Notes under the pieces: generated by a model
Database searches by the model: none
What the model was told of the DNA's origin: nothing
What the model saw: only the letters and a program-made list of their open reading frames with translations
Made by a program: the position numbers and the translations under genes
Origin: Blattamonas nauphoetae
Taxonomy: Eukaryota > Preaxostyla > Oxymonadida
NCBI GenBank assembly: GCA_033064195.1
Contig: JARBJD010000330.1
Coordinates: 1-64,000, forward strand
Direction of reading: 5' to 3'
Length of the DNA stretch: 64,000 bases
Part shown: piece by piece, positions 1,177-55,261 of the stretch
Numbering within the stretch: position 1 is the first letter of the stretch
How the letters are laid out: every line of letters starts with the position of its first letter

Positions 1177-4100
1177 AAGGAACAGAAGAAGGAGGAAAAG
1201 AGGAAGGACCAGGAAGAAGGAGGGAAAGAGGAAGGAACAGAAGAAGGAGGAAAGAGGAAGGAACAGAAGAAGGAGGAAAGAGGAAGGAACAGAAGAAGGG
1301 AGGAAAGAGGAAGGAACAGAAGAAGGAGGAAAAGAGGAAGGAACAGGAAGAAGGGAGGAAAGAGGAAGGAACAGAAGAAGGAGGAAAGAGGAAGGAACAG
1401 AAGAAGGAGGAAAGAGGAAGGAAACAGAAGAAGGGAGGAAAGAGGAAGGAATGGAAGAAGGAGGAAAGAGGAAGGAAACAGAAGAAGGAGAAAGGAGGAA
1501 GGAAACAGAAGAAGGGAGGAAAGAGGAAGGAACAGAAGAAGGGAGGAAAAGAGGAAGGAAACAGAAGAAGGGAGGAAAAAGAGGAAGGAACAGAAGAAGG
1601 AGGAAGGAGGAAGGAACAAGAAGGAGGAAAGAGGAAGGAACAGAAGAAGGAGGAAAGAGGAAGGAACAGAAGAAGGAGGAAAGAGGAAGGAACAGAAGAA
1701 GGGGAGGAAAGAGGAAGGAACAGAAGAAGGAGGAAAGAGGAAGGAACAGAAGAAGGAGGAAAGAGGAAGGAACAGAAGAAGGAGGAAAAGAGGAAGGAAC
1801 AGAAGAAGGAGGAAAGAGGAAGGAACAGAAGAAGGAGGAAAGAGGAAGGAACAGAAGAAGGAGGAAAAGAGGAAGGAACAGAAGAACTGAGGAAGGAGGA
1901 AGGAACAGAAGAAGGGAGGAAAAGAGGAAGGAAACAGGAAGAAGGAGGAAAGAGGAAGAACAGAAGAAGGAAGGAAAAGAGGAAGGAACAGAAGAAGGAG
2001 GAAAGAGGAAGGAACAGAAGAAGGGAGGAAAGAGGAAGGAACAGAAGAAGGAGGAAGGAGGAAGGGAACAGAAGAAGGGAGGAAAGAGAAGGAACAGAAG
2101 AAGGGAGGAAAGAGGAAGGAACAGGAAGGGAGGAGAGGAAGGAACAGAAGAAGGAGGAAAGAGGGGAAGGAACAGAAGAAGGAGGAAAGAGGAAGGAACA
2201 GAAGAAGGGAGGAAAAGAGGGAAGGAACAGAAGAAGGAGGAAAAGAGGAAGGAAACAGAAGAAGGAGGAAAGAGGAAGGAACAGAAGAAGGGAGGAGCGG
2301 AAGGAACAGAAGAAGGAGGAAAGAGGAAGGAACAGAAGAAGGGAGGAAAGAGGAAGGAACAGAAGAAGGGAGGAAAGAGGAAGGAACAGAAGAAGGAGGA
2401 AAGAGGAAGGAACAGAAGAAGGAGGAAAGAGGAAGGAACAGAAGAAGGAGGAAAGAGGAAGGAACAGAAGAAGGGAGGAAAGAGAAGGAACAGAAGAAGG
2501 AGGAAAGAGGAAGGAACAGAAGAAGGAGGAGAGGAAGGAACAGGAAGAAGGGAGGAAGAGGAAGGAACAGAAGAAGGAGGAAAAGAGGAAGGAACAGGAA
2601 GAAGGAGGAAAGAGGAAGGAACAGAAGAAGGAGGAAAGAGGAAGGAACAGAAGGAGGAAGAGGAAGGAACAGAAGAAGGGAGGAAAGAGGAAGGAACAGA
2701 AGAAGGAGGAAAGAGGAAGGAACAGGAAGAAGGAGGAAAGAGGAAGGAACAGAAGAAGGAGGAAAGAGGAAGGAACAGAAGAAGGAGGAAAGAGGAAGGA
2801 ACAGAAGAAGGAGGAAAAGAGGAAGGAACAGAAGAAGGAGGAAAGAGGAAGGAACAGGAAGAAGGAGGAAAGAGGAAGGAACAGAAGAAGGAGGAAAGAG
2901 GAAGGAACAGAAGAAGGAGGAAAGAGGAAGGAACAGAAGAAGGAGGAAAGAGGAAGGAACAGAAGAAGGAGGAAAGAGGAAGGAACAGAAGAAGGAGGAA
3001 AGAGGAAGGAATAGAAGAAGGGAGGAAAGAGGAAGGAACAGAAGAAGGAGGGAAAGAGGAAGGAACAGAAGAAGGAGGAAAGAGGAAGGAACAGAAGAAG
3101 GAGGAAAGAGGAAGGAATGAAGAAGGAGGAAAGAGGAAGGAACAGAAGAAGGAGGAAAGAGGAAGGAACAGAAGAAGGAGGAAAGAGGAAGGAACAGAAG
3201 GAGGGAAAGGGAAGGAGGAAAGAGGAAGGAATGGAAGAAGGGAGGAAAGAGGAAGGAATAGAAGAAGGGAGGGAGGAAAGAGGAAGGAACAGAAGAAGGA
3301 GGAAAAGAGGAAACAGAAGAAGGAGGAAGAGGAAGGAACAGAAGGAGGAAAGAGGAAGGAACAGAAGAAGGAGGAAAGAGGAAGGAACAGAAGAAGGAGG
3401 AAAGAGGAAGGAAAGAAGGAGGAAAGAGGAAGGAACAGAAGAAGGGAGGAAAGAGGAAGGAACAGAAGAAGGAGGAAAGAGGAAGGAACAGAAGAAGGAG
3501 GAAAGAGGAAGGAACAGAAGAAGGAGGAAAGAGGAAGGAACAGAAGAAGGAAGAAAGAGGAAGGAACAGAAGAAGGAGGAAAGAGGAAGGAACAGAAGAA
3601 GGAGGAAAGAGGAAGGAACAGAAGAAGGAGGAAAGAGGAAGGAACAGAAGAAGGAGGAAAGAGGAAGGAACAGAAGAAGGAGGAAAGAGGAAGGAACAGA
3701 AGAAGGAGGAAAGAGGAAGGAACAGAAGAAGGAGGAGAGGAAGGAACAGAAGAAGGAGGAAAGAGGAGAACAGAAGAAGGAGGAAAGAGGAAGGAACAGA
3801 AGAAGGAGGAAAGAGGAAGGAACAGAAGAAGGGAGGAAAGAGGAAGGAACAGAAGAAGGGAGGAAAAGAGGAAGGAACAGAAGAAGGAGGAAAGAGGAAG
3901 GAACAGAAGAAGGAAAGAGGAAGGAACAGAAGAAGGAGGAAAGAGGAAGGAACAGAAGAAGGAGGAAAGAGGAAGGAACAGAAGAAGGAGGAAAGAGGAA
4001 GAACAGAAGAAGGAGGAAAGAGGAAGGAACAGAAGAAGGAGGAAAGAGGAAGGAACAGAAGAAGGAGGAAAGAGGAAGGAACAGAAGAAGGGAGGAAAGA

Positions 4101-5334
4101 GGAAGAACAGAAGAAGGAGGAAAGAGGAAGGAACAGAAGAAGGAGGAAAGAGGAAGGAACAGAAGAAGGAGGAAAGAGGAAGGAACAGAAGAAGGAGGAA
4201 AGAGGAAGGAACAGAAGAAGGGAGGAAAGAGGAAGGAACAGAAGAAGGAGGAAAGAGGAAGGAACAGAAGAAGGAGGAAAGAGGAAGGAACAGAAGAAGG
4301 AGGAAAGAGGAAGGAACAGAAGAAGGAGGAAAGAGGAAGGAACAGAAGAAGGAGGAAAAGAGGAAGGAACAGAAGAAGGAGGAAAGAGGAAGGAACAGAA
4401 GAAGGAGGAAAGAGGAAGGAACAGAAGAAGGAGGAAGAGGAAAGAACAGAAGAAGGAGGAAAGAGGAAGGAACAGAAGAAGGAGGAAAGAGGAAGGAACA
4501 GAAGAAGGAGGAAAGAGGAAGGAACAGAAGAAGGAGGAAAGAGGAAGGAACAGAAGAAGGGAGGAAAGAGGAAGGAACAGAAGAAGGAGGAAAGAGGAAG
4601 GAACAGAAGAAGGGAGGAAAAGAGGAAGGAACAGAAGAAGGGAGGAAAGAGGAAGGAACAGAAGAAGGGAGGAAAGAGGAAGGAACAGAAGAAGGAGGAA
4701 AGAGGAAGGAACAGAAGAAGGAGGAAAGAGGAAGGAACAGAAGAAGGAGGAAAGAGGAAGGAACAGAAGAAGGAGGAAAGCGGAAGAACAGAAGAAGGAG
4801 CAAGGAACAGAAGACGGAAAGCGGAAGGAACAGAAGAAGCGAGGAAAGCGGAAGGAACAGAAGAAGGAGGAAAGAGGAAGGAACAGAAGAAGGAGGAAAG
4901 AGGAAGGAACAGAAGAAGGAGGAAAGAGGAAGGAACAGAAGAAGGGAGGAAAGAGGAAGGAACAGAAGAACCGAGGAAGGAGGAAGGAACAGAAGAAGGA
5001 GGAAAGAGGAAGGAACAGAAGAAGGAGGAAAGAGGAAGGAACAGAAGAAGGAGGAAAGAGGAAGGAACAGAAGAAGGAGGAAAGAGGAAGGAACAGAAGA
5101 AGCGAGGAAAGAGGAAGGAACAGAAGAAGGGAGGAAAGAGGAAGGAACAGAAGAAGCGAGGAAAGAGGAAGGAACAGAAGAAGGGAGGAAAGAGGAAGGA
5201 ACAGAAGAAGCGATGAAAGAGGAAGGAACAGAAGAAGGGAGGAAAGAGGAAGGAACAGAAGAAGCGATGAAAGAGGAAGGAACAGAAGAAGCGAGAAAAG
5301 AGGAAGGAACAGAAGAAGGGAGGAAAGAGTAAGG
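1177..5334. repeat. 4.2-kb all-purine minisatellite, 26/27-bp unit
   Basis: About 160 head-to-tail copies of a unit close to GGAACAGAAGAAGGAGGAAA plus GAGGAA; the top strand is almost only A and G with one C per unit. Most units are 26 bp; those with GGGAGG are 27 bp and dominate after about 5100, where variants (AGCGAG, AGCGATG) also accumulate. The unit lacks stop codons in most frames on both strands, so kilobase-long spurious ORFs arise on both strands, including arginine/glutamate-rich and proline/serine/phenylalanine-rich ones. I do not regard these as genes. Such purine mirror tracts can form triplex DNA; that is general knowledge, not shown here. Confidence 0.95.
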
Positions 5335-5726
5335 AATACAGTTGTTTAACGATTTTGATAATTTGGAAACTTTCTTCATCCCTTGCGCGTTCTCGGGCCG
5401 ATTGATGACCACTCTCCACAGCAACTTCCTTCCACAAAACGGAGTACTCCCATCTACTTCATTCTTCTCCATCTCGTCATCAGCACGCTCAATCCAAAAA
5501 ACATCTGATTGAGGGCTCAATTTGGTAGGTTTGATGGTCCAACACAGATTCTGACATGAGATCAACAGCTGATGGTCTGTCGTTCTCACAGAGAACTCTC
5601 AACATCGCGACGAATGGAAGGGTCGTACTGTGACTTGACATGATTTGGAGCTGGAGGAGAGGTTCGTATTTTGTTTGTCTTTTTTCCGGCATTTTCCAAT
5701 TTCCCAAAATTGTCCAACAATTGTAG
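5335..5726. other. unique 390-bp block interrupting the minisatellite
   Basis: Ordinary mixed-composition sequence sits between two purine arrays of the same unit. Its edges carry weakly inverted sequence (ACAGTTGTT on the left, AACAATTGT on the right), which might be the ends of a small insertion. No convincing target duplication and no gene. Confidence 0.5.
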
Positions 5727-6035
5727 AAGAAGCGAGAAAAGAGGAAGGAACAGAAGAAGGGAGGAAAGAGGAAGGAACAGAAGAAGGGAGGAAAGAGGAA
5801 GGAACAGAAGAAGGGAGGAAAGAGGAAGGAACAGAAGACGAGAGCAAAGAGGAAGGAACAGAAGACGTGAGCAAAGAGGAAGGAACAGAAGAAGCGAGCA
5901 AAGCGGAAGGAACAGAAGAAGGGAGGAAAGAGGAAGGAACAGAAGAAGGGAGGAAAGAGGAAGGAACAGAAGAAGCGAGCAAAGCGGAAGGAACAGAAGA
6001 AGGGAGGAAAGAGGAAGGAACAGAAGAAGCGATCA
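5727..6035. repeat. second purine minisatellite block, 27-bp unit
   Basis: About 12 copies of the unit of the main array, here consistently 27 bp, so each frame repeats nine residues (for example KEEGTEEGR). Several units carry AGCGAGCAAAGCGG or ACGTGAGC variants. It is a continuation of the main array beyond the unique block. Confidence 0.9.
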
Positions 6036-39700: not shown

Positions 39701-42700
39701 TCCAACTGATCCATTTGAGAAATCGGAATTCGATTTGAATTTTAGAATTGCTGTTCCACTCAGTGAGAAAGCAGCATGCGAAGACATCAGCGATGTGATC
39801 GGTCCAGAAATCGATGACGTTCCACCAGACATCGAGATCAGTGGAGATGAGCGAGTTGGTTGGACAGAAACAATAACATCCTCAGTGTCGATTGAGAAAG
39901 ATCCAGAAGTGATCGACAAGAGTGGATGCGACGAACTTGGTGTCGCGATGCTGCCTTTCGTGAGAATCAGCGATCCTCCTCCGACAGCAAACAGACTCGA
40001 CGCTATCGATTTCTGATCAGAATTGATTGAACAGTCAGTCATCTCGATTGCCCCTGACTGCACATCCAGAATCGGCATCATGCGGTTTGCTGAGTTGATT
40101 TCAAATTGCATGGAGAGTGAGGCGAGGGTGAGGCTGGACGGGACTCCATTCTGGATGCTGATTTGGGCGTCATTGTAAACAGTGAGAGAGTTCGATGCGG
40201 ATCCACGAAGAATCCATTTTGTCACTGTCGACAAAAGAGGAGAAGTCAGGTTCAGATCAGAGTCAATATCAATTTCGGGAGTCTCAGATTCTGGAGATTG
40301 TGGTTTCAAGTTCCTCATCGCTTGAGAAAGAGTCGAGCAAGGAAGTTCTGTCACTCCACACAAAGGATGGTCTTCTCCACCTGTCCGAAGATGCACTGCT
40401 CCCGTTCTGTGTGGATGCCAATAAAACAGCAGAGATCCTTCCGATCCTCCAACCTTCGTCTCTCTTCCCCACAGCAACTTTCGCTGCTCATCTGTGAACA
40501 CAGAATTGGGACTGACATTGGGCTTGATCGATGCGAGAGGAGATGGGTCAGATGTCGGAGTCAGGAATGCTTGGAGGTCTGAACAAACAACGAACAGTCC
40601 GTTTCCATTTCCATCCTCAACTTCGCAATCCGTGAATGACACTCCCTCCCCAGTTCTGAATGATCCAGTCGAGATCGCTGAAAGATCGACGAAACACCCT
40701 CCTCCTTCCTTCGACGATGAACATTCTGTGAATGAGGTGTGCGAGATGGCGAGCACTCCACCTTCTGAGAGAGTGCAATGCAGAGCTCCTCCATCTCCAC
40801 GAGACGAACACGACGTGAAGAGAACTGGCTTCGATTCTGCACCAATCTCCACTTTCTGGCTGTTTCCAATCGACAACGTCAGAGCACGAGCTCCCTCAGA
40901 GTTTGAAGATGATGTCGTTGAGTCCACAAGAGAGGTGAAATTACAATCGAGAATCAAGACTGATCCACTTCCACCGATCAATGACGAAGAGAGTGCAATA
41001 TGTTCAAACTGTTCATTCTCAATCGAAAACCATCCACCATCCACTGAAACCACAGGAACAATCCCACATGGAGCCAGAACTGACGAAGAGGAATCAATTA
41101 TGACAGATCCTCCTCTCATAAGAAACAGAATGCACGCCAGCGAGTCACTGTTCGTGGTGAGTGTGCATCCATCCATTTCCAGTGATCCTGATTGGATGTC
41201 GAACACAGGCAACACACGACTCGCAACATCAGTTTCAAACTGGATGGAGAGTGAGGCGAGCGTCAGGCTGGACGAGACACCAGTTTGGATGATGATTTGG
41301 GCGTCATTGTAAACATTGAGGGAGTTCGATGGGGATCCACGAAGAATCCAATTCGTTACGGTCGACAAAAGAGGAGAAGTGAGATTGAGATCAGAGTCAA
41401 TCGAAACTTCGGGAGTCTCAGATTATGGAGATTGTGGTTTCAAGTTCCTCATCGCTTGAGAAAGAGTCGAACAAGGAAGTTCTGTCACTCCACACAAAGG
41501 ATGGTCTTCTCCACCTGAACTCAGATGCACTGCTCCCGTTCTGTGTGGATGCCAATAAAACAGCAAAGATCCTTCCGTCCCTCCCATCTTTGTCTCTCTT
41601 CCACTCAGTCGATCTCGCTCTTCAGTTGTGAACACTGAATTGGATGTGAACGTGGGCTTGACTGCGGCGAGGAGTGTTGATTCTGCGAGCGGAAGGATCA
41701 GAGCTGCGATGTCTGAGCACACGATGAAGATTCCGTTCATGTGATCATCTTTCGCTTGGCAGTCGCTGAAGAAGACACTTGCGTCGACGTTGAACGAGCC
41801 TGATGATAAGAGCAAAAGATCGACGAAACAAGCTCCTCCTTCCTTCGACGATGAACAGTCGGTGAATGTTGTGTGTGAAATCGAGAGGATTCCACTCCCA
41901 GAGATCGAACAGTGCAGAGCTCCTCCATCTCCACGAGACGAACACGATGTGAAGAAAACTGGCTTCGAGTCTGCTCCGATGGCGAGTATCTGGTCATATC
42001 CAACGGGGATGTCGATGGCGCGGTTGGGAAATGGCGACATGTCTTTCTCTCTGATCGAGAAGAAAGATGAATCGAGGATGGTCAGCGAGCCATTTCCAGT
42101 GATCAATGATGAGAGGGATGTGATGTTCGAGAAGGACGACGATTCGATGGATGCTGTGCCAACAATGTTGAGGAATGTTCCAAGCTCAGAATGATTGAGG
42201 TTCACTTCTTGTTCCATCAGATTTACAGACGTGCCGCTTTGAATTTGGATGATGCTCGTTCCTTGGCTGAGACGGCACGCTGGAATGACACATTTCGAGA
42301 TTGTTCCTGAACCTTCTGCAATTTCAACGAGATGTCCAGAAATCGTGGGAGACGAAGATGGGTTGACAAATGTGATCGCAGTCAGAGTGAGTGTGCCTGA
42401 CGAGGAAATCGTGGCTTTCCCGGAGTCGACAGGAGTGAGGACGATGGACAGGGATTCAACAATGAGAATGCCGTTCTGTTTCACTGTGAGGAGCGATCCT
42501 GTTGAATCCTTGGTTTTCAGGAGAGCATGTTTCGCAACATCAAGGCTGATGAGTTTGATCTTCTTCGCGATGACCAGAGGATCCTCCTCGTGTTCACCCT
42601 CTCCAATTTCAACCAACACAGGGTCAGATGTTGATAGGACGGTTGGACAGAGTTTCAGAGCGAATGCAACGGTTCGGCACAAACGAGAGGGATGAGCACA

Positions 42701-45700
42701 CATCGTCTCATCGATTGCCGTTGGTGGATCAGATTCTGCGGCGACTCGAAGTTGTGGAGTGAGGAAGCCAGAACTGAAATCGTTCTCTTCAGTGATGAAC
42801 GGTTCGTCGCACAGCAACTGACAATTCGAGAAGGAAAGTGAAGAAGTCTCTGAAAGCCAGATCGGATTGATCGTGATTCGACCCTTCTGCAGACTTGAAC
42901 TTGAAGATGCCACGAAGAGTCCATCCACGCTCGCCAGATTAGGTGATTTGAAACCAAACGAGAGTGGTGCCCATTCTTTCTCTTCAATTCCGCAGTCGAT
43001 GAAGTGGATGTTGGAGAGAGTCAGACCACTCGATGACCAGACGAAGAAGAAAATGTCATGACCTCCGACACAATTCCGAAGAACAACATTCTCAACAGAC
43101 GAACCGGTTGAGATGTTGTTGAAAAAGACAGCATTGATCATGTGAGCCGATGAACACTCGGCGATATTGCAGTCCCGAGCGATGACTTGTCCTTGGACAA
43201 CCGAAATGGCACCAGAATAAGCGGCATACAGATTCTTGCTAATTTTGCACTTCAGAAAATCGCACGAAGTGATCGTTGTGGTGATGACCCCCAGAGATGT
43301 CAGAGCTGCTCCTCGAATTTCAATCCCATCAGCGGTGAGTGATTCGAAGTGGCAGGAGGTGATCGAAGCGGAGCCAATTTGGTTCAAATACAGTCCGGCC
43401 CCCGATCCTCCAGCGATGGAGTTCGACGCAAAGTGAGTGTCGGTGATTTCGATTGATCCTGGTTTTGCGGCGTTTCCAATCACTCGAACGATACCACCAC
43501 GTGTTTGAGCAGAAGGGTTTGATATTTTAGGATCAGTGATTTCGAATCCTGTGTAATCTTTGTCGAGCGAGTGACAGTCGACGAACTGGCAGGATTTGAT
43601 GGTGACTTCGCTGTTTGTGGAGAGTGATGCTTCAACAACCACTCCACTCCCTTCCTGTCGGGTGATCGACGTGAAGTTCGACGATTGGATGGTGAGCAGA
43701 GTTTGTCCTTCGTTTGTTATTCTGATCGGTGCGGCATCTTGAAAGATGAAGCCCGAGAGCTTCACCGAATAGAAGATGAGTGATCCCGTTGTTCCGACGA
43801 AGAATGGTTTTGTGAAGGCTGCGTCAGTTTGAGCAGCTCCATCAACGATGACATCAGACAGCTCGAATGTTCCTCCGTTCGACACTTCGACGAGGGTGGA
43901 TGTGGGTGATGGAACGAGAGAGACACTGCTCAGAGCGAGAGAGCCAGTTGTGATGGAGAAGAGCACACTCGTCGACTTGTCAGCAATCCGCACTTTGTCC
44001 TTTCCATCTCCCTCAACGTCCAAATGTCGCTCTCCGATCGTCAGGTCACTTTCTTCCATTTCCACCGATTCTGAGTTCTCCTCGCATTTCAGGAGAAGCT
44101 TCCCTTCGAACAGCACACTCAGACGAGGCAGTGTGTCAGTGAGAGTTTTGCATCCATTCCCATTCCCAGGCACCCAACAGAATGCCTCGTCCACACCATC
44201 TGTTGAGTCAATGATGATATCTAGAACTGTCAGGAATTGTGATTGGACATTCTCAGTTCCATCAAAATGAATGACCGACTTTGGCTGATTGGTTGAGAAG
44301 CAATTGACGACCTTGTCTTTGTTCATCGAATTCAGATCTTTGAAGACGCTGACATCCAACCCTCCCTTGCCTCCATCTCCGGCTTCGAACCAACAATCCT
44401 TCAAAGAAAGATCTGCGAGTAAAGTTTGACCTGTGTGAAGGATTTCGTTGTCAATGGCAGGGCCGATATTTCCAGAATTTCCCACGATTTTCCAGAATTG
44501 AAGTGAGATTGTTCCTTTCTGACTTCTGAACCCAAACTGACCATTTGTTGTTCCAGTGCAATGAGAAAGCATGCAAGATGATGACTCAAACGTGCCATAG
44601 CAGTCATCTGACTTCCAGGAACCTTCATAGCGTGTGACTTTGCCATCCATGAAGACAGTATTGTGGAGGGCAACATTGAGGACTCGAGAGATACGACACG
44701 AATCGATAAAATCTGCCTTGTTTCCTCTAAAATGACAATGACTAATGCTCGATGAATAAGCTTGTTGATGTCAGATCGATGGCTCCTCGCGTATTTTGAG
44801 CAGAGCAACCAGAAAAATTTGATGATAAAAATTGAGCAGTTTGTCCGCTTGATGCCGTGGAGGTGAAAGAAACAGCACCGGCAATCGCAGATCCAGTCAC
44901 AGAACATGATGAGAACAAGCATCTGTCGATCTTGAGATTAGCTGAGTGTTGGAAACTAATAGCGCCTCCGCTAACACCGACAGCAGGAGAACAACCCTGA
45001 AAAGTGTCTCCAGTGAACGAGAAGAGGTTTCCGGTCGCGGGGGTGGTTGTTATGATGACTTGGCGTCCCAGATTGCTTGTACCGGTCCTTCTCGTTTGAA
45101 AATACGAGTTGTTGAGGGAAGTGAACGAGACGTGTTTGTTCAAGCTTAGAAACACATTTCCATCAAGGACATCCTCGTTAGACATGAACGAGTTTCCAAC
45201 TATGAGCGATGATGTCTGGCTGGTGTGCTGTGCTTCCAATGAAGACAAAACAGGAGAATGCGTCACATTTCTGATCTGGCAGTGGCAGAGCTGGATGGTT
45301 CGGAGAGAATCCCCCAGAATCGGCGAAGATGCGATTTTGTGAGTCTGCTCCAGGCGACAGGCAAATAATCTGAACTCTCCATTTGTAGACAGACTCACGA
45401 TCAGCGATGATGTCGTAGTTGGTTGGACTAGAGTGGTTTGGACCAGAATCAGTGTCCCATCCACTTCGAACAATTTGCGGCCGTTTGATTCCAGAAGACA
45501 GCTTTCAGACTTGAAATGCGACGTCTCATCCACTGTGGCAATGATCTGGTCGGCGATGGTGAAGGCCACGTTGGTGAAAGACAACGACGAATTGCTGAGC
45601 GAGAAAAGCGGTTTGTTGTCGTTGACGAGTTTGGACGGGAGAATGGTGGAAATGTCAGACGTCGATATGAAATCAATGTTCTGAGAGACAATAGTCATCG

Positions 45701-45848
45701 GTCTGCTGACGAAAACCGACTCTTCGAGCTTGATCTCGGAATGGTCATGGACTCCATTGGATGACAGATTGCTGTCCTTAACAAGAACACTGAGATCACT
45801 TGGTTGGCAGAATAACCAAGTAAGGACGAGAAAAACAGAGATCAGCAT
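36782..45848 (-). pseudogene. broken tandem duplicate of the 2646-residue beta-helix pseudokinase gene (copy 2)
   Basis: Homologous along its whole length to the neighbour at 28005-35945: signal peptide from the ATG at 45848 (MLISVFLVLTWLFCQPS), beta-helix ectodomain, membrane helix, and the same pseudokinase tail with RWQAPEL and VFSLGLVLWEIET. Two lesions split it. Near 44757 a net 8-base deletion relative to copy 1 shifts the frame, so the first segment stops at 44742 after ALDLTSTSLF-like residues. At 41423-41425 a single C-to-A change (plus strand) turns the Glu codon of copy 1 (NLKPQSPES) into TAA. The rest, 41422 to 36782, stays open. It also holds one extra 378-codon module. Either a recent pseudogene or, less likely, an assembly with two errors. 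The last 1528 codons could still be expressed from an internal start. Confidence 0.85.
40287..42554 (-). repeat. internal 1134-bp tandem module repeat in copy 2
   Basis: The block around 40287-40470 (GTCTCAGATTCTGGAGATTG onward) recurs at 41421-41600, an offset of exactly 1134 bases (378 codons). Both encode the LCGV.ELPCS.LSQAMRNLK module opener and the WILRGS.SNSL follow-on. Copy 1 has this module once. The right edge of the second unit is approximate. Confidence 0.7.
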
Positions 45849-45918
45849 TGACGGTGACAACAACGCGGTTGATGATTTCCGGCTGAGATCTTAAAAACAT
45901 AGTATGGCTTGATCAAAC
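45849..45918 (-). promoter_or_regulatory. conserved 5-prime flank of the tandem pair, copy 2
   Basis: Carries the same GATTTCCGGCTGAG (45874-45887) and CATAGTATGGCTTGATC (45898-45914) blocks as copy 1, at the same distance from the ATG. Similarity fades immediately to the right, marking the right edge of the duplicated unit. Confidence 0.4.
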
Positions 45919-46699
45919 AGCGTTCATTGCTTCAATAGTCTATTCAGTCAATCTCTGCATGAAAGACTAAAGAGATTTACCGGATCTGGTTCATACTGTT
46001 CTCATCAGATGAGGTGGAGTTTCAGAAACAAAGTGTGCACGTTGGAAAACAAGTTGAGTGAGTTCTGTCTTTAGAAATGAAGAGAAAACGCCTCTCCACA
46101 CTCAATTCGAGCTTGGCAGAGACGAACAGGAGAAACACTGGTCCAACAGAAAACGATGGAGAAGTGGTGTCTGAGTGTATGGAAGTGACCACAGAACAAG
46201 AAAAGACTGAATAGAAGCCAAGATACGAGATTCAGGGGAATCAACGACATCAAAACTGGTCGATCTCAGAGGACAGAGATGACGATGAAAAAAGACAGAA
46301 ACTGAAATGATGGACCATTCAATACGAAGAGACGATACACTCTCCTGTCTGCTCGGAAAGACGAAAGAAAATGAAATCTCGCAGAACAACGATCCAGATG
46401 GACCAGTCAGTGGTTCAACGAGATTTGCTGAGCATGAGGGAGGTGAAGTACGAGATGACAACAGAAAAGATGCGATGCAGAAGGAGAGTGAGGAGCAACA
46501 GAAAGACTGACAACTAAAAATGATGAAATGATGATCAACTCAAGATTGTCTAATCCGTCGATCAGAAAGAGAGAGAAACGGAAGAAACGGAGTGTGTGAT
46601 GAAATGGTGGTTCCAAAGATGATCAGTTGAGTGATGAAAACACTCATGATGAACTATTGAAATGAAATGAAGATCAGACGAGAACGAGATGAGAACAGG
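45919..46699. other. intergenic, nothing recognised
   Basis: Purine-rich plus strand with only weak frames. It is the 5-prime flank of copy 2 and the 3-prime flank of the next minus-strand gene. No RNA gene or repeat identified. Confidence 0.4.
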
Positions 46700-48108
46700 T
46701 CAACCAGTGATGGCGATGGAGGCGATTGGCTGTTGGTGGACGGGAGGATCAGGTGGTGAGAGTGTGGAGGAGAAGAGTGTGTTGAGATCGGAGAGCGAGG
46801 GGCGGTCGTTCGGGTCGAAAGAGAGACACTCCTCAACAATCGATGCCAGCGACGAGTCTTCCCAATTCTCAATCAGTGGCACTTGGCCTCCGTTCACTTG
46901 TCGACTCGCATTCACTGCATCCAGCTCCCCAAACGGCACAAGACCAGTCTCCAGTTCCCACAAAACGAGGCCAAGCCTAAAAACTGACGCCTTCAGAGCA
47001 TCAAATGGAACAGCTTGTGGTTCTTTCTCATCTTTCTTGTGGTCTCTGTCATCTTCATCAATCTGTTCAGGCGCACTCCAACGACGATCCTCTTCTCGCA
47101 TCTTCTTCCGATTCGCGATCTGATGTTCCGTCAGATCTGTCTCGTTCAAGTTCTGATCCAGTTTCAGGAAAACCGAGCCAGAAGAATCAACGAGGACCCA
47201 GTGCGACGAGAGTTGAGTGAGGACGTCGCTGAATGGATTGTGTTGCACGAGTCGATTCAGCCCAGCCACCAACTGTCGTCGGATCTCCACCTTCGGCAGA
47301 TCACTTCTCTTCTCAACGTGGAGCGCTGAGTACAGTGTTCGGTTCGCAGGAACACGAACCACAGCTGGCTCACCTTCGCATTTCAACACTTCCACATGTT
47401 CGATGAATGATTGTCCAAAAGACGAGAATTGTTGTTGGTCCTGAGCAACACCATTGCTGATCATGTTGAAAGAGTTTGGATGGAGTGTCACATTGGTTGT
47501 GTCCAAAACTGGTCGAATGGTTGAATTGTTCTCAAGTTCCTCTTCTTTTACTTCGACTTGGCACTCGTCCAGCTCACTCATCGCTTTTGGTTTCTCTTCC
47601 TTTTTCTTCTTTTGTTGACGTCGACAAATCAGAACAAGCACGACGATCAGAAGGAAGAGGAGGAGAACGACGGAGCACACAATCGGAACAACAATCGACA
47701 CAACTCGACCACCCTGCGACATGTTCCCTTTCAGTCCTGTCAGCGAGAACGAATCTGTCTTTCCACTCTCACCAAACAGAACACGACAGTGCAGATCGAG
47801 TTTCTTGTTCAGCAAAGCGAGCGATGACTGATGAAGAGACAGTTCGATTGTGTCTTCTTTCCACAATGTCACTTCGGATGCATCCAACTTAACCAAAATG
47901 TGTTCGCCTTCCGAGTGTTCTGATTCGGAGAGCGCAATACGTTCAAACACTTCGAAAGACAGATCACACGGGATGAAGATCTTCCCTTTCAACACAATCT
48001 CATACGCCTTCGCTTTCCTGTCGAACTTGGAAGTTGACTCTGCCGACGAGAGGGATGGGATGAAGAAGGGTGTTGGAAGAATCGTATCTTCCTTCTCGAC
48101 TGAGCAGT
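46700..48108 (-). pseudogene. C-terminal part of a DIRS-interrupted beta-helix pseudokinase gene
   Basis: Encodes the membrane-proximal region (FFIPSLSSAEST, KGKIFIPCDLSFEVFE), a membrane helix (VVSIVVPIVCSVVLLLFLLI, nucleotides about 47640-47715) and a kinase-like tail. The tail keeps RWSAPEQ, VFRLGLVLWELETGLVPF and CLSFDPNDRPSL, with SHWVLVDSSGSVFLKL in place of HRD and DFG. The frame is open to the DIRS element at 48109 and resumes at 55790: the two flanks join without gain or loss of a base in frame (WISTT, then NCSV), matching the spacing of the homologous WISSSDC in the 3632-residue protein. On its own this part has no start codon or signal peptide. Confidence 0.85.
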
Positions 48109-48126
48109 GGAGTTCCCCCTGGTCAC

Positions 48127-48184
48127 TCCAAGCCCAAACGAGGGCTCCTCAACACATCGAGATAGTACACTGACGTGTAATGGG
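48127..48184. repeat. DIRS left inverted terminal repeat (outer part)
   Basis: TCCAAGCCCAAACGAGGGCT and onward to TGTAATGGG matches the inverse of 55733-55789 with two substitutions and one indel. The repeat resumes at 51074-51087 (TGCCAGATCGAAAC), after the nested transposon. The 18 bases outside it (48109-48126) occur only at this end and in the internal complementary region. Confidence 0.85.
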
Positions 48185-48276
48185 GGTTAAGTATAGGCGC
48201 AGATCCGATTTTCGCTACGCGCAGATCTAAAAATTTGGATACGCGCAGATCCAAATGGATACACGCAGATCTAAAC
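48185..48276. repeat. left terminal inverted repeat of the nested transposon
   Basis: About 90 bp, with CGCAGATC at four positions roughly 22-27 bases apart. It matches the inverse of 50973-51064; the longest difference is a short AT-rich stretch. Confidence 0.85.
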
Positions 48277-48421
48277 TTTTGTTGTTTCTGTTTGAATTTA
48301 TGGCTGATTGTTGTCTCAGAAAACTTCAATATGGACTGATTTACTCTCAAACATCTTTCAGAATAACAAATCGATCGAAAAAAGTTGATTAATTATGCAA
48401 GGTGATTCCAAAAAAGTGACT

Positions 48422-48618
48422 GTCGTGAATTGCTGTTTAAAGAGACTGCACTGGATGAAATCTTGAAAATTCTGGTTGTGATCCATGATAATGCTAATAT
48501 ACCCGACTACGGTGACAAAGACCAAGGGTTATGGAGTGTGTTGGCCTTCGGCATTGGAGGCGTTCAATTTGACAACATGGCGGCTTCTATGGTATTAAAA
48601 AGATCAAAAAGAATGTAG
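48422..48618 (+). pseudogene. captured gene fragment inside the nested transposon
   Basis: The frame reads CRELLFKETALDEILKILVV then IHDNANIPDYGDKDQGLW and ends at a stop at 48618. The composition is that of a folded helical protein, loosely like an armadillo/HEAT repeat, but I do not recognise the family. There is no start codon or upstream exon. It lies opposite to the coiled-coil gene, so two different host loci seem to have been captured. Confidence 0.4.
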
Positions 48619-48797
48619 TAGTGGATTGAATTGTTGCTGTGTTAATTTGGAGGGGAGAAAGGGGGTTGAGCGACGAGGTGGTTGTGGTTGCATAGTTTGA
48701 GAAAGAATACGTAGAGCGAAAGGACGCCTATCATGATTGATTGAACATAGATGAACCAAAATTGTCATTATCTGGTCGTTTACAGTTGGATGAGTTA

Positions 48798-50865
48798 TCA
48801 CCCTCCTCGCTCCACATTGGCGAACGGCGACGACCTTTGCACGTCTTCGCTCCGCTTCTCTTTCTCCCGCTCGACCTTCCCTTTCGACGACCCAATTTTC
48901 GGAGGTGTGTGTGTTGCTTGTAGGCTGCCCTCCTTCGAAGTAGCTGCGACCTTCTTTGGAGTAGCCTGAGCGGGCTGAAGACGAACGAGCTGGTGCTTTC
49001 TTTGCTGAGGATGGGCGTTGTGGCGATTTGGGGCGACGAGAATCACAACATCTTCCTCGTCGCCGACCGAGTGACTCCGATTCTGTTTCTTCTTCTTCCC
49101 AATCAGCTTTTGGAACGCCTTCCTCTCCGCGTCTCGCTTCTCCCTCTCCTTCATCTGCGCCTCCTTCACCACCTTCCGCCGCTCGGCCTCCTCATCGTCC
49201 TTCATCTCTAGCTCGATCCTCCGCTTCTCTTCCTCCAGCGCTTTCTCCTCTTTCGACTTCCCTCTCGTCAGCCACGGTTTGTCGCCTGCCTGTGCCTTCT
49301 TCTCTACCTCGAGCTGTTGCAGTTTCTCTTCGTATTCCCGCTGTTTCTTGTCGTCCACTTAATTTTTTGTTGTGCAGCTGGTTTCGTCTCTTTCGACTGT
49401 TGGAATGACACGCCGGTCGGTGTCCTCGGTCGGGCTGAGCGTGGCTGAGACGGAGCTGGCGAGGCTGCTCGTTGAAGCATTCCCTGCAACTCCCCAAATT
49501 GGTCTTCCAATTTCTGCATTTTCTGTTTGTCGGTGCTTTTGGGGCGATCGGACAGAGGTGAGCCGGTTTTTGGTCGATCGGCGACTGTGGGAGTGACACG
49601 CCTGGCTGAGAGTGGCCTTCTCTCTGCACTCTTCGGTGGAGCCTGTTTGGGTGCAGGAGCAGCTGAACTTGGTCAAGGAGCTGATGTTGGGCGTGGAGAG
49701 ACTCTTCTTCTTCTGGACTGAGATGGGTTCGTACGAACGAGGGTCTGGCTGGGAATATTGTGACGGGGGAAGCGAAGGGGGAGCATTGCTTCCATCCATT
49801 TTGGCATCAATTGCCATTTTGTTCCGTCGGGCCTGTTCCTGTTGATTAAAAAAGTTGCGACGAGCTTCTTCACGAATCATGCGTTCTCGATCCTCTCTGG
49901 CTTTCATTTCCCTCATCTTTTGCTCTCTCGCTTCAGCAGCTCGAGATTCAGCTTCTCTTCGCCTTTGCTCCATCTCTGCCGCCTGTCGCCTGCGTTCGGC
50001 CTCCTTGGCCGCTTCTTGCCTTCTTAATTGCTCCATACGCTGTCCTTGAGCCTCTGCAGCGGCAGCATACGCGGCTTGCTGCTTCTTTACCAACTCTTCC
50101 GCCCTCTGCCGTTCCTTTTCGAGTGCTTGTTGTCTCAAGATCTCTCTTTGTCTGGCTTTGGCTTCTTCCACCCTGTGTTCGGCCTCCATTCGCTCTTTTG
50201 ACTGAACATTGTTCTGTGCTTGAGGAGTGGATGCTCGTGGAACTGGTGAATGGGCTCGATTTGGTGGTTGTGTCGGTTTCACAGCCTGTTGTTGTGGAGG
50301 CAGATAATTAAGCGAAAATATCGTTCATCCAAACAGTCTCCGGTACTGGTATTTCATTTTCACGGAAATGACTCACCAAACGCCAACATCAGAACGAAAT
50401 TTTGACGAGTGGCCTCAGAAGTAGCAGGATCGCGATGGATCAGGAAAGTTGTCAAATTTACATAAAGTTGCTGATCATCTGGATCACTTGTTGATCATTC
50501 AAGACAGATATCACCCAAGTTACGTTGAGGAGGATCCTGATGAGGATCGAGATGGTTTCGAGAGAAGAGGAGGAGTAGGATGAAGAGAAAGATGCAGATC
50601 CTGCGAGAACAGAGGAATGAAAGAGCAAAGAGTTGAGGTACGTGAATATTTTAAGAATAAGAGCAGAAAATGAAGAGGAAAAGGTGGGCAATCAAATGGA
50701 TACACAGAACAGCCTAACGTGTGATCCATGTGCAAGAAAAGGGAAAAATATGGTCAGTGTGGGAAAATGACATACCAAGCTAAGTAATATTGGACTCTGA
50801 TTTGGAGTTGAAACATCAATCGAGAGACGGGTGATGGTAAGATCAACATTCTCGTTTGACGACAT
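48798..50865 (-). pseudogene. captured multi-exon coiled-coil gene inside the nested transposon
   Basis: Likely first exon 50776-50865: ATG then MSSNENVDLTITRLSIDV, 30 codons, ending at a GTATGT donor. Another exon-like stretch near 50385-50475 reads DPDDQQLYVNLTTFLIHRD and ends at GTGAGT. A long part follows an acceptor CAACAACAG at about 50284. The long part is proline-rich, then a charged coiled coil (EAKARQREILRQQALEKERQ; EAERRRQAAEMEQRR), a proline/serine linker, a second coiled coil (EEKALEEEKRRIELEMKDDE) and a basic tail, with a stop at 48798. Frame changes near 49675 and 49365 suggest single-base deletions. Retained introns imply capture at the DNA level. The function is not recognised; coiled-coil proteins of this type are often cytoskeletal, which is only a guess. 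Confidence 0.6.
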
Positions 50866-50972
50866 TACAAAATTAGATTTATGAAAAGTATGTGAGAGTA
50901 AAAATGAATTGTGAGCATTCAGAGTGAAATAACATGAATAGGATATGGTAAGCACAAAACAATCAACGATCC

Positions 50973-51064
50973 TTTTGGATCTGCGTGTATCCATTTGGAT
51001 CTGCGCGTATCCCTTTTTTTAGATCTGCGTGTAGCGAAAATCGGATCTGCGCCTATACTTAACC
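50973..51064. repeat. right terminal inverted repeat of the nested transposon
   Basis: Inverse of 48185-48276 with a few differences. It ends in CCTATACTTAACC directly before the second copy of TGTAATGGG. Confidence 0.85.
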
Positions 51065-51087
51065 TGTAATGGGTGCCAGATCGAAAC

Positions 51088-52278
51088 ATGTCTCAACTTC
51101 GAAACGAAGAGACCTTGCCGCAAACTCCATCACAAGTCCGCCAGCAGTTCGATGACGAGCTTATTATTACGCTTGCGGCTCAGATTGCAGACAAAATACC
51201 AACATTGTTGACTCAGATGAATACGCAAAAAATCATGGAATCAAGTCGAGACAATGCCCAATCGATGGATTCACAACATCAAGAAAGTGACAGGAAGCAA
51301 CTTTTGGGAAGAGAAATCCGAAAAATGAAGCGGAACATGGCGAGTGGAATCGATCCAGCTGAGGATTCAGATTCATCTATTTCTCGGGATCAACGGCGCT
51401 CAGCACGTTCAAATGGACACAACCGGCATAAATACAACATTGACTCGTGCACAAGCACATCAGAATTTTCATCATCCATATCGTCCAGCAGAGACAGTTC
51501 CTCATCGAGTTCTCGTGATGAAAGGCGACGAAGTCACCAAAAAAGGAGAGATCATCGACGAAAAGCAAAAGGATGGAAGAAACATCACGGAAGTCGGTCA
51601 AGATCAAGCTCATCCAGAACACACCGGTCACGACGCATGTCGCACCGCAGTTCCCGCCGAAGACAAGAACAATTGAAAAAGAATATTCTCCGGGAGTTGC
51701 GAAAGCAAGAGCCGACCTTCAAAAAGGGTTGGCTTAAGGTTGCGCTTCCGGCCCAGCAGAGGGACGCATCGAACTTACGATCATCTTCAATGCGGAACGT
51801 CCTGGAGATTCCTGTCGAAATGGCTAAGAATAGCCTCATTCTCACTCCGGACAGACGAATTCAAGATCAGGCGCTCCTTACATCGACCCAATCCAGCCTT
51901 TCTTCAGTTGGCTTGATGGCTGAGGTCTACGGACAAGTATGCGATGAACAACCTCCCTCACACATTCTGTCGACGATCGGGGAAGCAATGATGTCTTCTG
52001 CTGATGCGGCGTGTTGCGCGCATTATGCCAGATACGTGACACCTTCGAATTCTGGTCGAATAGCATCTATATTGAACTTAACTCAGCCTGCCTCGGTGGA
52101 TTCAGATCTGCTCACCCCTCCAAATCAGCGCCAGTCAAATGGAACACAGGGCGGTCATAGTCAATCTCAGACCATGAATCATTCGGCTTTCTCTCCCAGT
52201 GGGGGGTCAGGCCTCCCCCCGAATCAAACAAAAGGCCCATACAACCAACGATATCAAAAACAGCGGCCTCGAATTTAG
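51088..52278 (+). CDS. DIRS gag-like protein
   Basis: A frame of 396 residues from the ATG at 51088 (MSQLRNEETLPQ); it is open a little upstream, where a GTG overlaps the terminal repeat. The N-terminal third is acidic and Ser-rich. Then comes an Arg/Ser-rich basic stretch (SSSRTHRSRRMSHRSSRR) suited to nucleic-acid binding, then a conserved-looking helical segment (PTFKKGWLKVALPAQQRD to ADAACCAHYARYV) and a low-complexity tail. Its position before the polymerase and the basic region support a gag role; no zinc knuckle is seen. The terminal repeat that should carry its promoter is split from it by the nested transposon ending 23 bases upstream of the ATG. Confidence 0.75.
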   Translation: MSQLRNEETLPQTPSQVRQQFDDELIITLAAQIADKIPTLLTQMNTQKIMESSRDNAQSMDSQHQESDRKQLLGREIRKMKRNMASGIDPAEDSDSSISRDQRRSARSNGHNRHKYNIDSCTSTSEFSSSISSSRDSSSSSSRDERRRSHQKRRDHRRKAKGWKKHHGSRSRSSSSRTHRSRRMSHRSSRRRQEQLKKNILRELRKQEPTFKKGWLKVALPAQQRDASNLRSSSMRNVLEIPVEMAKNSLILTPDRRIQDQALLTSTQSSLSSVGLMAEVYGQVCDEQPPSHILSTIGEAMMSSADAACCAHYARYVTPSNSGRIASILNLTQPASVDSDLLTPPNQRQSNGTQGGHSQSQTMNHSAFSPSGGSGLPPNQTKGPYNQRYQKQRPRI

Positions 52279-53855
52279 TCTCAGAGCAGATTCCTCTCCC
52301 ACTTCGTCTCCTCAACTCAATAGACAACTGGACGAAAGTTGGGGGAGCGCAGCGAGTGCAGGCAGGTGCACTTTGGAATTGGAAAGATGCGGAGTCTCCA
52401 CAGCGACTCCAGAACTTGAGCTGGGCGCCTCCGTTCCGTGGGAACCCGGAGGAAACGGAGGCGTTCCGGGCTCTCCTGGAGGAAGAGTTGAGGGCAGGAG
52501 TTGTTGTCGAGGTGCCGATTCATGAAGTAGGAATGTCGCTCCATACGTTCTTAGTCCCCAAGCCTGGGGGGAAATTCCGAAAAATACTCAATGCGTCACC
52601 TCTGAACGACGAGATTCAGGTGGACCATTTCAAAATGGAAAATATCAAAACAGTGATGGACCTGATTGTCGGTGGGGAATGGATGACCAGTCTAGACATT
52701 CGGAACGCTTATCAACATGTCATAGTACCTCCTCAGCTTCGTCGTTATCTGTGCTTCGGCTACAACAACACCTTCTACCAATATGTTGGAATGCCCTTCG
52801 GGCTTGCAACCGCACCGCGGACTTTCACAAAAATTATCAAGATTGCAGTCAAATCGATGAGAGAAGAGCTCCAGACTCCAATTGTGTTTTACCTCGACGA
52901 CATTCTACTCCTATTCAAGACCAAAGAGGAAGCAGAAACGAAGACAAAGCAAGCCATGGAAAGGTTGGAAGCACTGGGATTCGAACTGTCTCAGAACAAA
53001 TGTCAGACAATCCCAAGTCAAACGATCGACTTTCTCGGTTGGACGATAGCATCACATACTCAGACCCTTTCCATTACACAGTCCAGGCAGAGCAAGCTGC
53101 TGAACACCCTTCGCATTCTTTGGCCGCAGGCGGTATCCAGCCAGCTGATACAGGTCAGAGCGCTGGCGAAAATTATAGGCCAGCTCAACTTCTTGCGCGA
53201 AGTCGTTCCCTCAGCGAGTCTCTATCTCAAAAGATTCAACAAGTTGAGAGACGAAACAGTCCGGAAGGCAGGATGGAACTCCAAGGCTCAGCTGTCTCCC
53301 CTTCTCAAGGGAGAGATCACATTCTGGAAGGCAACGATCACGGAGAATATACCACATTCGTTCAGACAACAGACCCCACAAGCGAACTTGACTGTAGATG
53401 CCAGTCCCATGGGGTGGGGGTGTGTATTGGAGAGGAAAGGACAGACAACGTACCTACACGACAGCTGGACGGAACGACAACAGACAGAGACATCCAACTG
53501 GAAAGAAACTGCAGCAATCAGGTTTGCAGTAATCCGAGCAGCACCGATCCTCCATCCACAAGGAGTTACAGCAGTCCAGGTGTTCAGCGACAACACTGCA
53601 GCAGTCAACAACCTTCGGAGGCAGAGAGCATGCCCAGCGTTGACTCCAATCACCCGGCTGACACTAAAAACGATCCAGACAGCGGGCCTGACGATGACCG
53701 GGATCAACCACATCCCTGGGACACTCAATTCCACTGCGGATGCCCTGTCAAGACTTCATCCGCAGGCAGAATACACATTCACTCCACAGGCAATGAAAAC
53801 CATTCAAGAAAGATTGTCACTCGATCCGCAGATCGATCTTTTGCATCAGCGCTGA
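52161..53855 (+). CDS. DIRS reverse transcriptase-RNase H
   Basis: The frame is open from 52161, overlapping the end of gag in another phase, so expression by frameshift or internal initiation is likely; the first plain non-ATG start is near 52356. Reverse transcriptase: FLVPKPGGKFRKILNASPLN (palm entry), MTSLDIRNAYQHV, FGLATAPRTFTK and the catalytic YLDDILLLF, then FLGWTI. RNase H follows: TVDASPMGWG, NWKETAA, VFSDNTAAVNNL and NSTADALSRLHP carry the acidic residues. The frame ends at 53855 within DLLHQR, but one extra T would continue into DLFASALNKQC, the usual downstream segment of DIRS polymerases (next frame, to 54070). I therefore read this as a frameshifted copy. Confidence 0.9.
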   Translation, partial: SISDHESFGFLSQWGVRPPPESNKRPIQPTISKTAASNLVSEQIPLPLRLLNSIDNWTKVGGAQRVQAGALWNWKDAESPQRLQNLSWAPPFRGNPEETEAFRALLEEELRAGVVVEVPIHEVGMSLHTFLVPKPGGKFRKILNASPLNDEIQVDHFKMENIKTVMDLIVGGEWMTSLDIRNAYQHVIVPPQLRRYLCFGYNNTFYQYVGMPFGLATAPRTFTKIIKIAVKSMREELQTPIVFYLDDILLLFKTKEEAETKTKQAMERLEALGFELSQNKCQTIPSQTIDFLGWTIASHTQTLSITQSRQSKLLNTLRILWPQAVSSQLIQVRALAKIIGQLNFLREVVPSASLYLKRFNKLRDETVRKAGWNSKAQLSPLLKGEITFWKATITENIPHSFRQQTPQANLTVDASPMGWGCVLERKGQTTYLHDSWTERQQTETSNWKETAAIRFAVIRAAPILHPQGVTAVQVFSDNTAAVNNLRRQRACPALTPITRLTLKTIQTAGLTMTGINHIPGTLNSTADALSRLHPQAEYTFTPQAMKTIQERLSLDPQIDLLHQR

Positions 53856-54070
53856 ACAAACAATGCGCAGCATATGTCTCGCTATCTCAGGACGAAAACG
53901 CAGTTGGAAGAAACGCATTCTCCCTCGACTGGTCCGGGATGATTCAACCACTTCTTCATCCTCCTATTCTGCTGATCACTCGGGTTCTGAACAAGCTGAT
54001 GAAGGAAACAGTTCATCAGGGGATTCTGATCACCCCAAACTGGGACAATCAACCTTGGTCCCTCTCCTGA
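53841..54070 (+). pseudogene. out-of-frame continuation of the DIRS polymerase
   Basis: Frame plus 1 relative to the polymerase: FASALNKQCAAYVSLSQDEN, AFSLDWSGMIQPLL, ILLITRVLNKLMKE, GILITPNWDNQPWS. DIRS-type polymerases carry such a segment just after RNase H. A single-base loss in the T run at about 53840 separates it from the RNase H frame. It stops at 54070. Confidence 0.6.
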
Positions 54071-55261
54071 AAAAGTCGAAGTGGAATCATTCGTTCTAGG
54101 CCCATTCATTCAAATGACTCAATATTTAAGCAACGACAGAGAGCTGAAGCTCCCGCCCGGAATGGTAAGAGTTTCTATAGTGGGCAGGAGAACATCGATG
54201 GACTGCACTTCTTCCGCGAGCTGTGTCGAATAGGAAAGATTGATGGACGAGTTGTGCAAAGAGAGGAGAAGCGATATAAACAGAAAGGACCGTGGATGCG
54301 AGCGTGGAAGTTGTTTCGACTGTTCTGCCAGAACAACAACTTCTCGTCCGACACCATCATCCAGCCTTCGAACAAGATCGAACCGATTCTGTGCACGTTC
54401 ATGGAGGAACTCGCACAACAGTTCCCTCCTCCCAGTCAACTACCACACACAGTCCTTGTCAAAGTGGTCAAGTCCCTCGGCCTCTTTCACCCAACGCTCC
54501 ACTCTCCACACTCCCACATCTCTTCGTACCGGAAACTACTAGCGAAGGAGAGCCCGTCATCGAGACACCAGAAGAAATACCATGTGATGTGGCACATTAA
54601 CCTCCTTTTGGATTGGGTACGATCAACTTGGGAGCGAGCCCACTCAGATCACACTCTACATCAGCGTCGAACCTGTGCACTTCTCCTCGCCTCAACCTGC
54701 TGTCGCAGAACGGAGATTGTGAATCTCCGTTGGAAGGATATTGAGTTCATCAAGAAGTCTGATCACAACCCTGAGTCCTTCGCGACTATCTCGATCATTG
54801 CGAAAAAGAACCAAACTGAAAAAGAAATCCGCTGTGTCCGCGATGAGGGTGAACCAAGTTACTCTCCATTCATTGCCCTGTCACAACACAGATCAAATGT
54901 CATCTCCGCCTTCCCTGAGCTATCCGATCCAGATCAATTCAAAGAGTCAAAAGTCTGGATCAACATGAATGATGGTTCGGCTGCAAAGATGCCGCAGGTT
55001 GCCGCTATGTTAAAAGACATTCTGACAGAGATTGGAGTCCCTGAACCTTTCGGACCCTATACCATCAAGCATTCCTCCGTAAGCTACCTACGCAGAGTGG
55101 CCAAGGTACCACTTGACGTCCTGAACGGGCATGTTGGGTGGTCGCAGCGATCAACGGCGGCCGACGACTACTATTCGGCGCCGATCTTGATTGGGACCTC
55201 GGCTCCAGAACTGGCACGCGAATGGTGGCAGCCCCTGAGGGGATTCGGCCACGACAAGTAG
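54071..55261 (+). CDS. DIRS tyrosine recombinase
   Basis: The frame is open from 54071 and runs to 55261, about 396 codons, with no early ATG, so the true start is uncertain. The N-terminal core-binding part (SGQENIDGLHFFRELCRIGK, KYHVMWHINLLLDWVRSTW) precedes the catalytic fold. Catalytic residues visible are Arg in CCRRTEIVNLRW, the His/Arg box IKHSSVSYLRR, GH in NGHVGWSQRS and the nucleophile Tyr in AADDYYS. In DIRS elements this enzyme inserts a circular DNA copy without target duplication, in keeping with the clean insertion seen here. The product ends shortly before the internal complementary region. Confidence 0.88.
   Translation, partial: KSRSGIIRSRPIHSNDSIFKQRQRAEAPARNGKSFYSGQENIDGLHFFRELCRIGKIDGRVVQREEKRYKQKGPWMRAWKLFRLFCQNNNFSSDTIIQPSNKIEPILCTFMEELAQQFPPPSQLPHTVLVKVVKSLGLFHPTLHSPHSHISSYRKLLAKESPSSRHQKKYHVMWHINLLLDWVRSTWERAHSDHTLHQRRTCALLLASTCCRRTEIVNLRWKDIEFIKKSDHNPESFATISIIAKKNQTEKEIRCVRDEGEPSYSPFIALSQHRSNVISAFPELSDPDQFKESKVWINMNDGSAAKMPQVAAMLKDILTEIGVPEPFGPYTIKHSSVSYLRRVAKVPLDVLNGHVGWSQRSTAADDYYSAPILIGTSAPELAREWWQPLRGFGHDK

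What the first reader, a model, noticed from the sequence alone, without database searches (positions are those of the whole stretch)
48185..51064. Pack-type transposon that captured a multi-exon gene in a protist
Terminal repeats and a perfect 9-bp target duplication bound 2880 bp with no transposase, a minus-strand coiled-coil gene with recognisable GT-AG introns and its own ATG, and a second gene fragment on the plus strand. Such gene-capturing elements are well known in plants (Pack-MULEs); I know of no described case in this type of protist.
Basis: partly seen in the sequence, partly recalled or inferred. Interest (0 to 1): 0.9.

Follow-up and report, generated by a model that had tools for sequence, protein, structure and literature searches.

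The report
Gene-capturing Mutator transposon in a flagellate
This stretch is one copy of a jumping-gene family that picked up a piece of a normal cell gene (a NEK-type kinase) and spread it around the genome, something well known in plants and here seen in what is probably a single-celled flagellate.

Summary
The element is real: 91-bp inverted termini (95%), a perfect 9-bp duplication, 2880 bp, no transposase. Its family has 147 forward and 149 reverse termini in the 88.3-Mb assembly; all 59 two-ended copies examined (55 distinct insertions) have 8-10-bp target duplications. It is a MULE: two relatives with the same termini (L072, L019) encode a PF10551 transposase. The coiled-coil "gene" is captured host DNA, the tail of a NEK1-like kinase gene. 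Its donor, or a close paralogue of it, lies unlinked and without termini on another contig (C712). 18 of 56 elements carry this piece, all with the same start and ends within 2 bases. 12 others carry pieces of a second gene, CFAP47; 22 have interiors I could not trace. So the Pack-MULE reading holds. New member of a known kind, in a lineage (probably the oxymonad Blattamonas) for which I found no such report; gene-carrying MULEs are described in plants and a mosquito.

The parts
48176..48184 (.). target-site duplication, left copy (TGTAATGGG)
48185..48275 (+). left terminal inverted repeat, with repeated CGCAGATC-type units
   Evidence: I1, D2
48276..48800 (.). left backbone, shared in part with other subfamilies; holds the plus-strand reading frame 48406-48618
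48801..50309 (-). captured tail of a NEK1-like kinase gene (donor L070 755-3013), with three internal deletions
49024..49031 (-). deletion junction, 8-bp repeat (77 bp of donor missing)
49377..49383 (-). deletion junction, 7-bp repeat (496 bp of donor missing)
49698..49700 (-). deletion junction (103-126 bp of donor missing, by the two alignments)
50310..50973 (.). right backbone, shared in part with other subfamilies; minus-strand ATG at 50865, GTATGT at 50775, possible second exon from 50470
50974..51064 (-). right terminal inverted repeat
   Evidence: I1
51065..51073 (.). target-site duplication, right copy (TGTAATGGG)

Best explanation
A non-autonomous Mutator-like element of the Pack-MULE type. 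An ancestor of this subfamily took up, once, about 2.26 kb of contiguous coding DNA from the coiled-coil tail of a NEK1-like kinase gene (donor-type gene, common endpoints and contiguity are shown; 'once' is inferred from them). It was then multiplied by the transposase of relatives of the same family acting in trans (inferred from shared termini and target duplications). Copies lost internal pieces, mostly at short direct repeats (shown), probably by slippage or interrupted gap repair during transposition (inferred). Inside the elements the cargo shows little or no coding constraint and is a passenger (codon-position counts, broken frames); chimeric transcripts from the backbone ATG are possible but untested.
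For: Termini and TSD; 147 + 149 termini; TSD in 59 of 59 two-ended copies among 62 loci examined: 55 of 9 bp, 3 of 10, 1 of 8; these are 55 distinct insertions, since 4 pairs have the same TSD and the same flanks. Transposase PF10551 5.4e-20 in L072 and 6.9e-20 in L019, both between the same termini; further matches at C351 and C830, not fetched. Donor-type gene L070: kinase exon, best solved relative NEK1 (1.3e-60); tail in one open frame of 1101 codons, 80-96% identical to the window cargo block by block, no terminus in its 3.8 kb. 18 of 18 NEK-bearing elements start at donor base 755 and end at 3013 (11) or 3011 (7); L061 holds the stretch in one piece, 92.5%. Cargo of 56 elements: NEK 18, CFAP47 12, RSN1 + transposase 2, RSN1 2, none of these 22. 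CFAP47 donor-type gene L073, FAP47 2.1e-55. Codon positions 1/2/3: fixed differences to L070 10/16/51, differences among copies 50/51/58; CFAP47 7/4/24 and 11/12/11. The window and C630 copies differ at 5 of 2880 bases and have different TSDs.
Against: A simple count gave N/S 0.53 among NEK copies, below 1 (P 0.0003); with transition bias allowed for it is 0.70 (P 0.04), against 0.97 and 0.88 in the two wrong frames, so some constraint within the element's life is not excluded. L070 differs from the element clade by 77 fixed, mostly third-position changes, so the true donor may be a lost or unassembled paralogue. 22 of 56 elements carry interiors that I could not trace to a host gene. Mobilisation in trans is not shown, nor that any transposase copy is active.
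Confidence: 0.95

Rival explanations
1. The coiled-coil gene is a standard accessory gene of the transposon family (like mudrB), not captured cargo.
For: It recurs in 18 of 56 elements, and the minus-strand region around the ATG is shared by many subfamilies.
Against: Absent from 38 of 56 elements, including both transposase-bearing ones; a kinase gene with the same tail exists outside any element; differences among copies are even over codon positions.
Confidence: 0.03
2. The fragment was taken up through spliced or processed RNA (a retro-copy), the gaps being introns.
For: The captured donor stretch is continuous coding sequence, and most copies lack internal blocks; one CFAP47 junction (L015, L018) can be placed with GT-AG ends.
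Against: The missing NEK blocks lie inside an open frame, differ between copies and lack GT-AG ends in the 17 copies run; L061 has the whole stretch.
Confidence: 0.02
3. The cargo is a functional chimeric gene: backbone ATG and exons spliced onto the NEK fragment and kept by selection.
For: All 18 NEK copies keep the ATG; the first block of 203 codons holds no stop in 9 of 11 copies examined, 3 of the 11 having gaps of 1-4 bases; N/S 0.70 in frame.
Against: Even spread of differences over codon positions; 1-3 stops in the donor frame in each of 18 copies (read in donor coordinates with insertions ignored); frame shifts between blocks; ATG and donor site not kept in several other subfamilies.
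Confidence: 0.05

Closest known systems
Pack-MULEs of plants (Jiang et al. 2004, rice; not read, seen as cited in passages of PMC13317346 and PMC6431247)
   Same: MULE termini, transposase absent, captured host gene fragments, many copies, cargo usually non-functional.
   Different: Host is not a plant; all cargo that I could trace comes from two donor genes (plus undecided RSN1-type frames), each multiplied after capture, while over 3,000 rice elements carry pieces of more than 1,000 genes.
Muta1 derivatives of the mosquito Aedes aegypti (PMC5225508, passages read)
   Same: MULE derivatives with shared termini and host gene fragments, one of them from a serine/threonine kinase gene.
   Different: Animal host; most derivatives there have varying interiors, here one capture is held in 18 examined copies.
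TvMULEs of Trichomonas vaginalis (PMC2725143, passages read; table in PMC6446971)
   Same: MULE family in a flagellate protist, 9-11 bp duplications.
   Different: TIRs of 20-38 bp; the passages found there by 'pack-mule', 'captur' and 'host gene' report no captured gene in TvMULEs.

Membership tests
MULE (Mutator-like element) | 8-11 bp target-site duplication | tested here: met
   59 of 59 two-ended copies: 55 x 9, 3 x 10, 1 x 8 bp; 55 distinct insertions
MULE (Mutator-like element) | MULE transposase domain in a relative with the same termini | tested here: met
   PF10551 in L072 and L019
MULE (Mutator-like element) | terminal inverted repeats | tested here: met
   91 bp, 95% in the window
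Pack-MULE | no transposase of its own | tested here: met
Pack-MULE | cargo derived from a host gene that exists elsewhere outside an element | tested here: met
   L070 NEK1-like gene, L073 CFAP47
Pack-MULE | moved in trans by the autonomous relative | not testable with these tools
   needs a transposition assay

The most novel reading that the evidence does not exclude
The right backbone works as an exon trap: promoter, ATG, first exon and splice donor at a fixed distance from the terminus are offered to whatever is captured, so that the family broadcasts chimeric or antisense transcripts of cilium-type genes (NEK1-like, CFAP47) that could tune their donors.
Probability: 0.08. Interest if true: 0.75.

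Novelty: new member of a known kind. Interest (0 to 1): 0.5.

Why it matters
It extends gene capture by Mutator-like elements to what is probably a deep-branching flagellate, with donor-type genes, common capture ends, a graded series of deletions and transposase-bearing relatives in one assembly. Capture and later shrinkage can thus be traced outside plants, which argues that capture is a property of the MULE superfamily and not of plant genomes. For annotation it warns that some coiled-coil or CFAP47-like gene models in this genome may be transposon passengers.

Tried and rejected
Considered and rejected: element-encoded accessory gene; RNA-mediated capture; functional cargo (see rivals). 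For a while I took the L019 transposase for part of a nested element, because the search with L019:1300-4700 broke at base 2574 and no long inverted repeat was found beyond it. The search with L019:4690-7600 showed that only a 1.43-kb piece of another repeat is nested and that the transposase belongs to this family, as L072 then confirmed. Codon positions for CFAP47 were first labelled in the wrong frame and redone. A copy count without a check for redundant contigs would have been too high: 4 pairs (L018/L034, L020/L059, L038/L060, L056/L057) share TSD and flanks and are the same insertion twice, so 18 NEK elements are 17 insertions and 12 CFAP47 elements are 10.

Led nowhere: searches with the L010, L014 and L048 interiors gave no host gene that I could name; L014 has 74% matches at C299 that I did not fetch. 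Pfam found nothing in six frames of L010, L014, L033 and L047, nor in the whole NEK tail frame of L070. Whether the RSN1/B-box frames of the transposase-bearing copies are captured or old accessory genes stays open: the C545 relative could not be fetched.

Not examined: the counts of termini (147 + 149) point to roughly 150 elements; 59 two-ended copies were fetched, most chosen from the first 100 listed places. Of the 28 candidate places for the NEK cargo I hold 22 (18 elements, L067 with one end, L069-L071); C808, C9:137k (except its start, in L005), C104, C90, C139 and C712:137k were not fetched.

Full report
Observation. The 2880-bp element at 48185-51064 has 91-bp inverted termini, 95% complementary, and the flanking 9 bases TGTAATGGG are repeated exactly. 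The 20-base terminus occurs twice in the window, against none in 100 shuffles, and 147 + 149 times in the 88.3-Mb assembly at up to 3 mismatches, against none for the pattern read backwards.

The family. I examined 62 loci (60 fetched by place as L009-L068, the window and L072). 59 have both ends, and 59 of 59 have a target duplication: 55 of 9 bp, 3 of 10, 1 of 8; 3 loci have one end only. Lengths run from 1.15 to 8.06 kb. Four pairs share duplication and flanks (98-100% over up to 150 bases on each side) and are the same insertion on redundant contigs, which leaves 55 insertions. The outer few hundred bases are shared across subfamilies while the middles differ.

Transposase. L072 (C822), 5569 bp between the same termini with a 10-bp duplication, has a 635-codon frame matching PF10551 (MULE transposase) at 5.4e-20. 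L019 (C48) is another copy, with a 1.43-kb foreign insertion in it; its frame matches at 6.9e-20. Further matches lie at C351 and C830 (not fetched). L072 and L019 read differently over a short stretch before the domain; I do not claim that either is active. On the opposite strand both carry broken frames with a B-box (PF00643, above its cut-off) and an RSN1_7TM match just under its cut-off (28.0 against 28.7 bits).

Donor of the cargo. A genome search with the middle of the window element gave 85 matches in 28 candidate places. Of the 22 that I hold, 18 are two-ended elements. One, L070 (C712), is a host gene: a protein-kinase exon (PF00069 1.6e-35; best solved relative NEK1, 1.3e-60) followed by a 1101-codon open frame without a Pfam match. 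Window 48801-50309 matches L070 755-3013 in blocks of 96, 93, 93 and 80%. L070 has no terminus at up to 5 mismatches in its 3.8 kb. L069 (C828) is a more distant paralogue (66-78%). L071 (C268) looks like a partial element copy.

One capture, then shrinkage. 18 of 18 NEK-bearing elements (17 insertions) begin at donor base 755; 11 end at 3013 and 7 at 3011. L061 has the stretch in one alignment block (92.5%). The others lack different internal blocks. In the 17 copies the edges of the missing NEK blocks share 4-13 bases, and none can be placed with GT-AG ends; two copies (L020, L059, the same insertion) have one block replaced by other sequence, without shared bases, and one listed 23-base overlap in the window copy is an overlap of alignment pieces, not a deletion.

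A second donor. 12 of 56 elements (10 insertions) carry at least 150 bp of another gene. Its donor-type gene L073 (C62) is open over 1133 codons with HYDIN/CFAP65-type domains (5.2e-39) and matches FAP47 at 2.1e-55. In the 9 copies run, internal blocks are missing too; edges share 0-13 bases, and one junction, seen in L015 and L018, can be placed with GT-AG ends. That both donors are cilium-type genes is suggestive only (two cases; the ciliary role of NEK1 is recalled).

Selection. Over the NEK stretch (sites covered in at least 6 of 18 copies) the copies differ from L070 at fixed sites by codon position 10/16/51, strongly third-position biased (P 5e-9), while differences among copies are 50/51/58 (P 0.70). 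For CFAP47 (10 of the 12 elements, L039 and L053 left out; sites covered in at least 4) the counts are 7/4/24 and 11/12/11. So both stretches were under selection as host genes and are little or not so in the elements. Against this: N/S among NEK copies is 0.53 uncorrected (P 0.0003) and 0.70 with transition bias (P 0.04), with 0.97 and 0.88 in the wrong frames. Each of the 18 copies has 1-3 stops in the donor frame (insertions ignored).

Backbone. The minus-strand ATG (50865) with the frame MSSNENVDLTITRL and the plus-strand frame at 48406-48618 recur near the same distance from the ends in many subfamilies without NEK cargo, there often without the ATG or with stops. They are not part of the captured gene. 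Whether they are remnants of an older gene is open.

Age. The window copy differs from the C630 copy at 5 of 2880 bases, with a different duplication, so this subfamily moved recently.

Organism. The assembly (837 contigs, 88,311,006 bases) is close to Blattamonas nauphoetae (879 contigs, 88,537,989 bp; PMC10703272, passages). This is an inference from size and contig number only; that the organism is a flagellate follows from it and from the CFAP47 gene.

What is known. Pack-MULEs are described as plant elements in passages of PMC6431247, PMC6446971 and PMC13317346; of PMC8903248 on Pack-TYPE elements I saw the start of the abstract and a term search without hits. MULE derivatives with host gene fragments are reported in Aedes aegypti (PMC5225508, passages), and capture by other DNA transposons in a fungus (PMC3538342, passages). 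In Ectocarpus some giant elements without transposase are called analogous to Pack-MULEs (PMC12477816, passages). My searches on protists and oxymonads listed no paper whose title or abstract start reports such a case; most were seen as listings only, and only open-licence papers are held.

Verdict. A true Pack-MULE by every feature that could be tested, new for this lineage as far as I could search, with an unusually complete record of donor, capture and decay; not a captured multi-exon gene.

Noticed in passing
window 51085-55261: Directly right of the element lie frames with reverse transcriptase (RVT_1 3.5e-25) and a weak phage-integrase match (2.8e-4, under its cut-off), as in DIRS-type retroelements (label recalled). 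The Pack-MULE sits just before the first frame of this unit.
   Followed up: partly
L028, about 1240-5800: A retroelement with RVT_1 (2.9e-25) is nested inside a CFAP47-bearing Pack-MULE.
   Followed up: partly
L011 2822-5420: A frame with an OTU protease match (1.2e-7) and a weak hAT dimerisation match is nested in a NEK-bearing element.
   Followed up: partly
L072 561-3216 minus; L019 858-3515 minus: B-box and RSN1_7TM-like frames accompany the transposase; captured channel gene or accessory gene is undecided.
   Followed up: partly
L019 3874-5308: A 1.43-kb member of another repeat is inserted in the transposase copy; the flanking matches at C822 and C351 overlap by 8 bases, as a target duplication would.
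   Followed up: partly
L018/L034, L020/L059, L038/L060, L056/L057: The same insertions on two contigs each: the assembly holds redundant (allelic or duplicated) contigs.
   Followed up: partly
window 41423-48148 minus: Long frames left of the element: one with a right-handed beta-helix match (4.9e-6), one ending in a kinase domain (2.8e-7).
   Followed up: no
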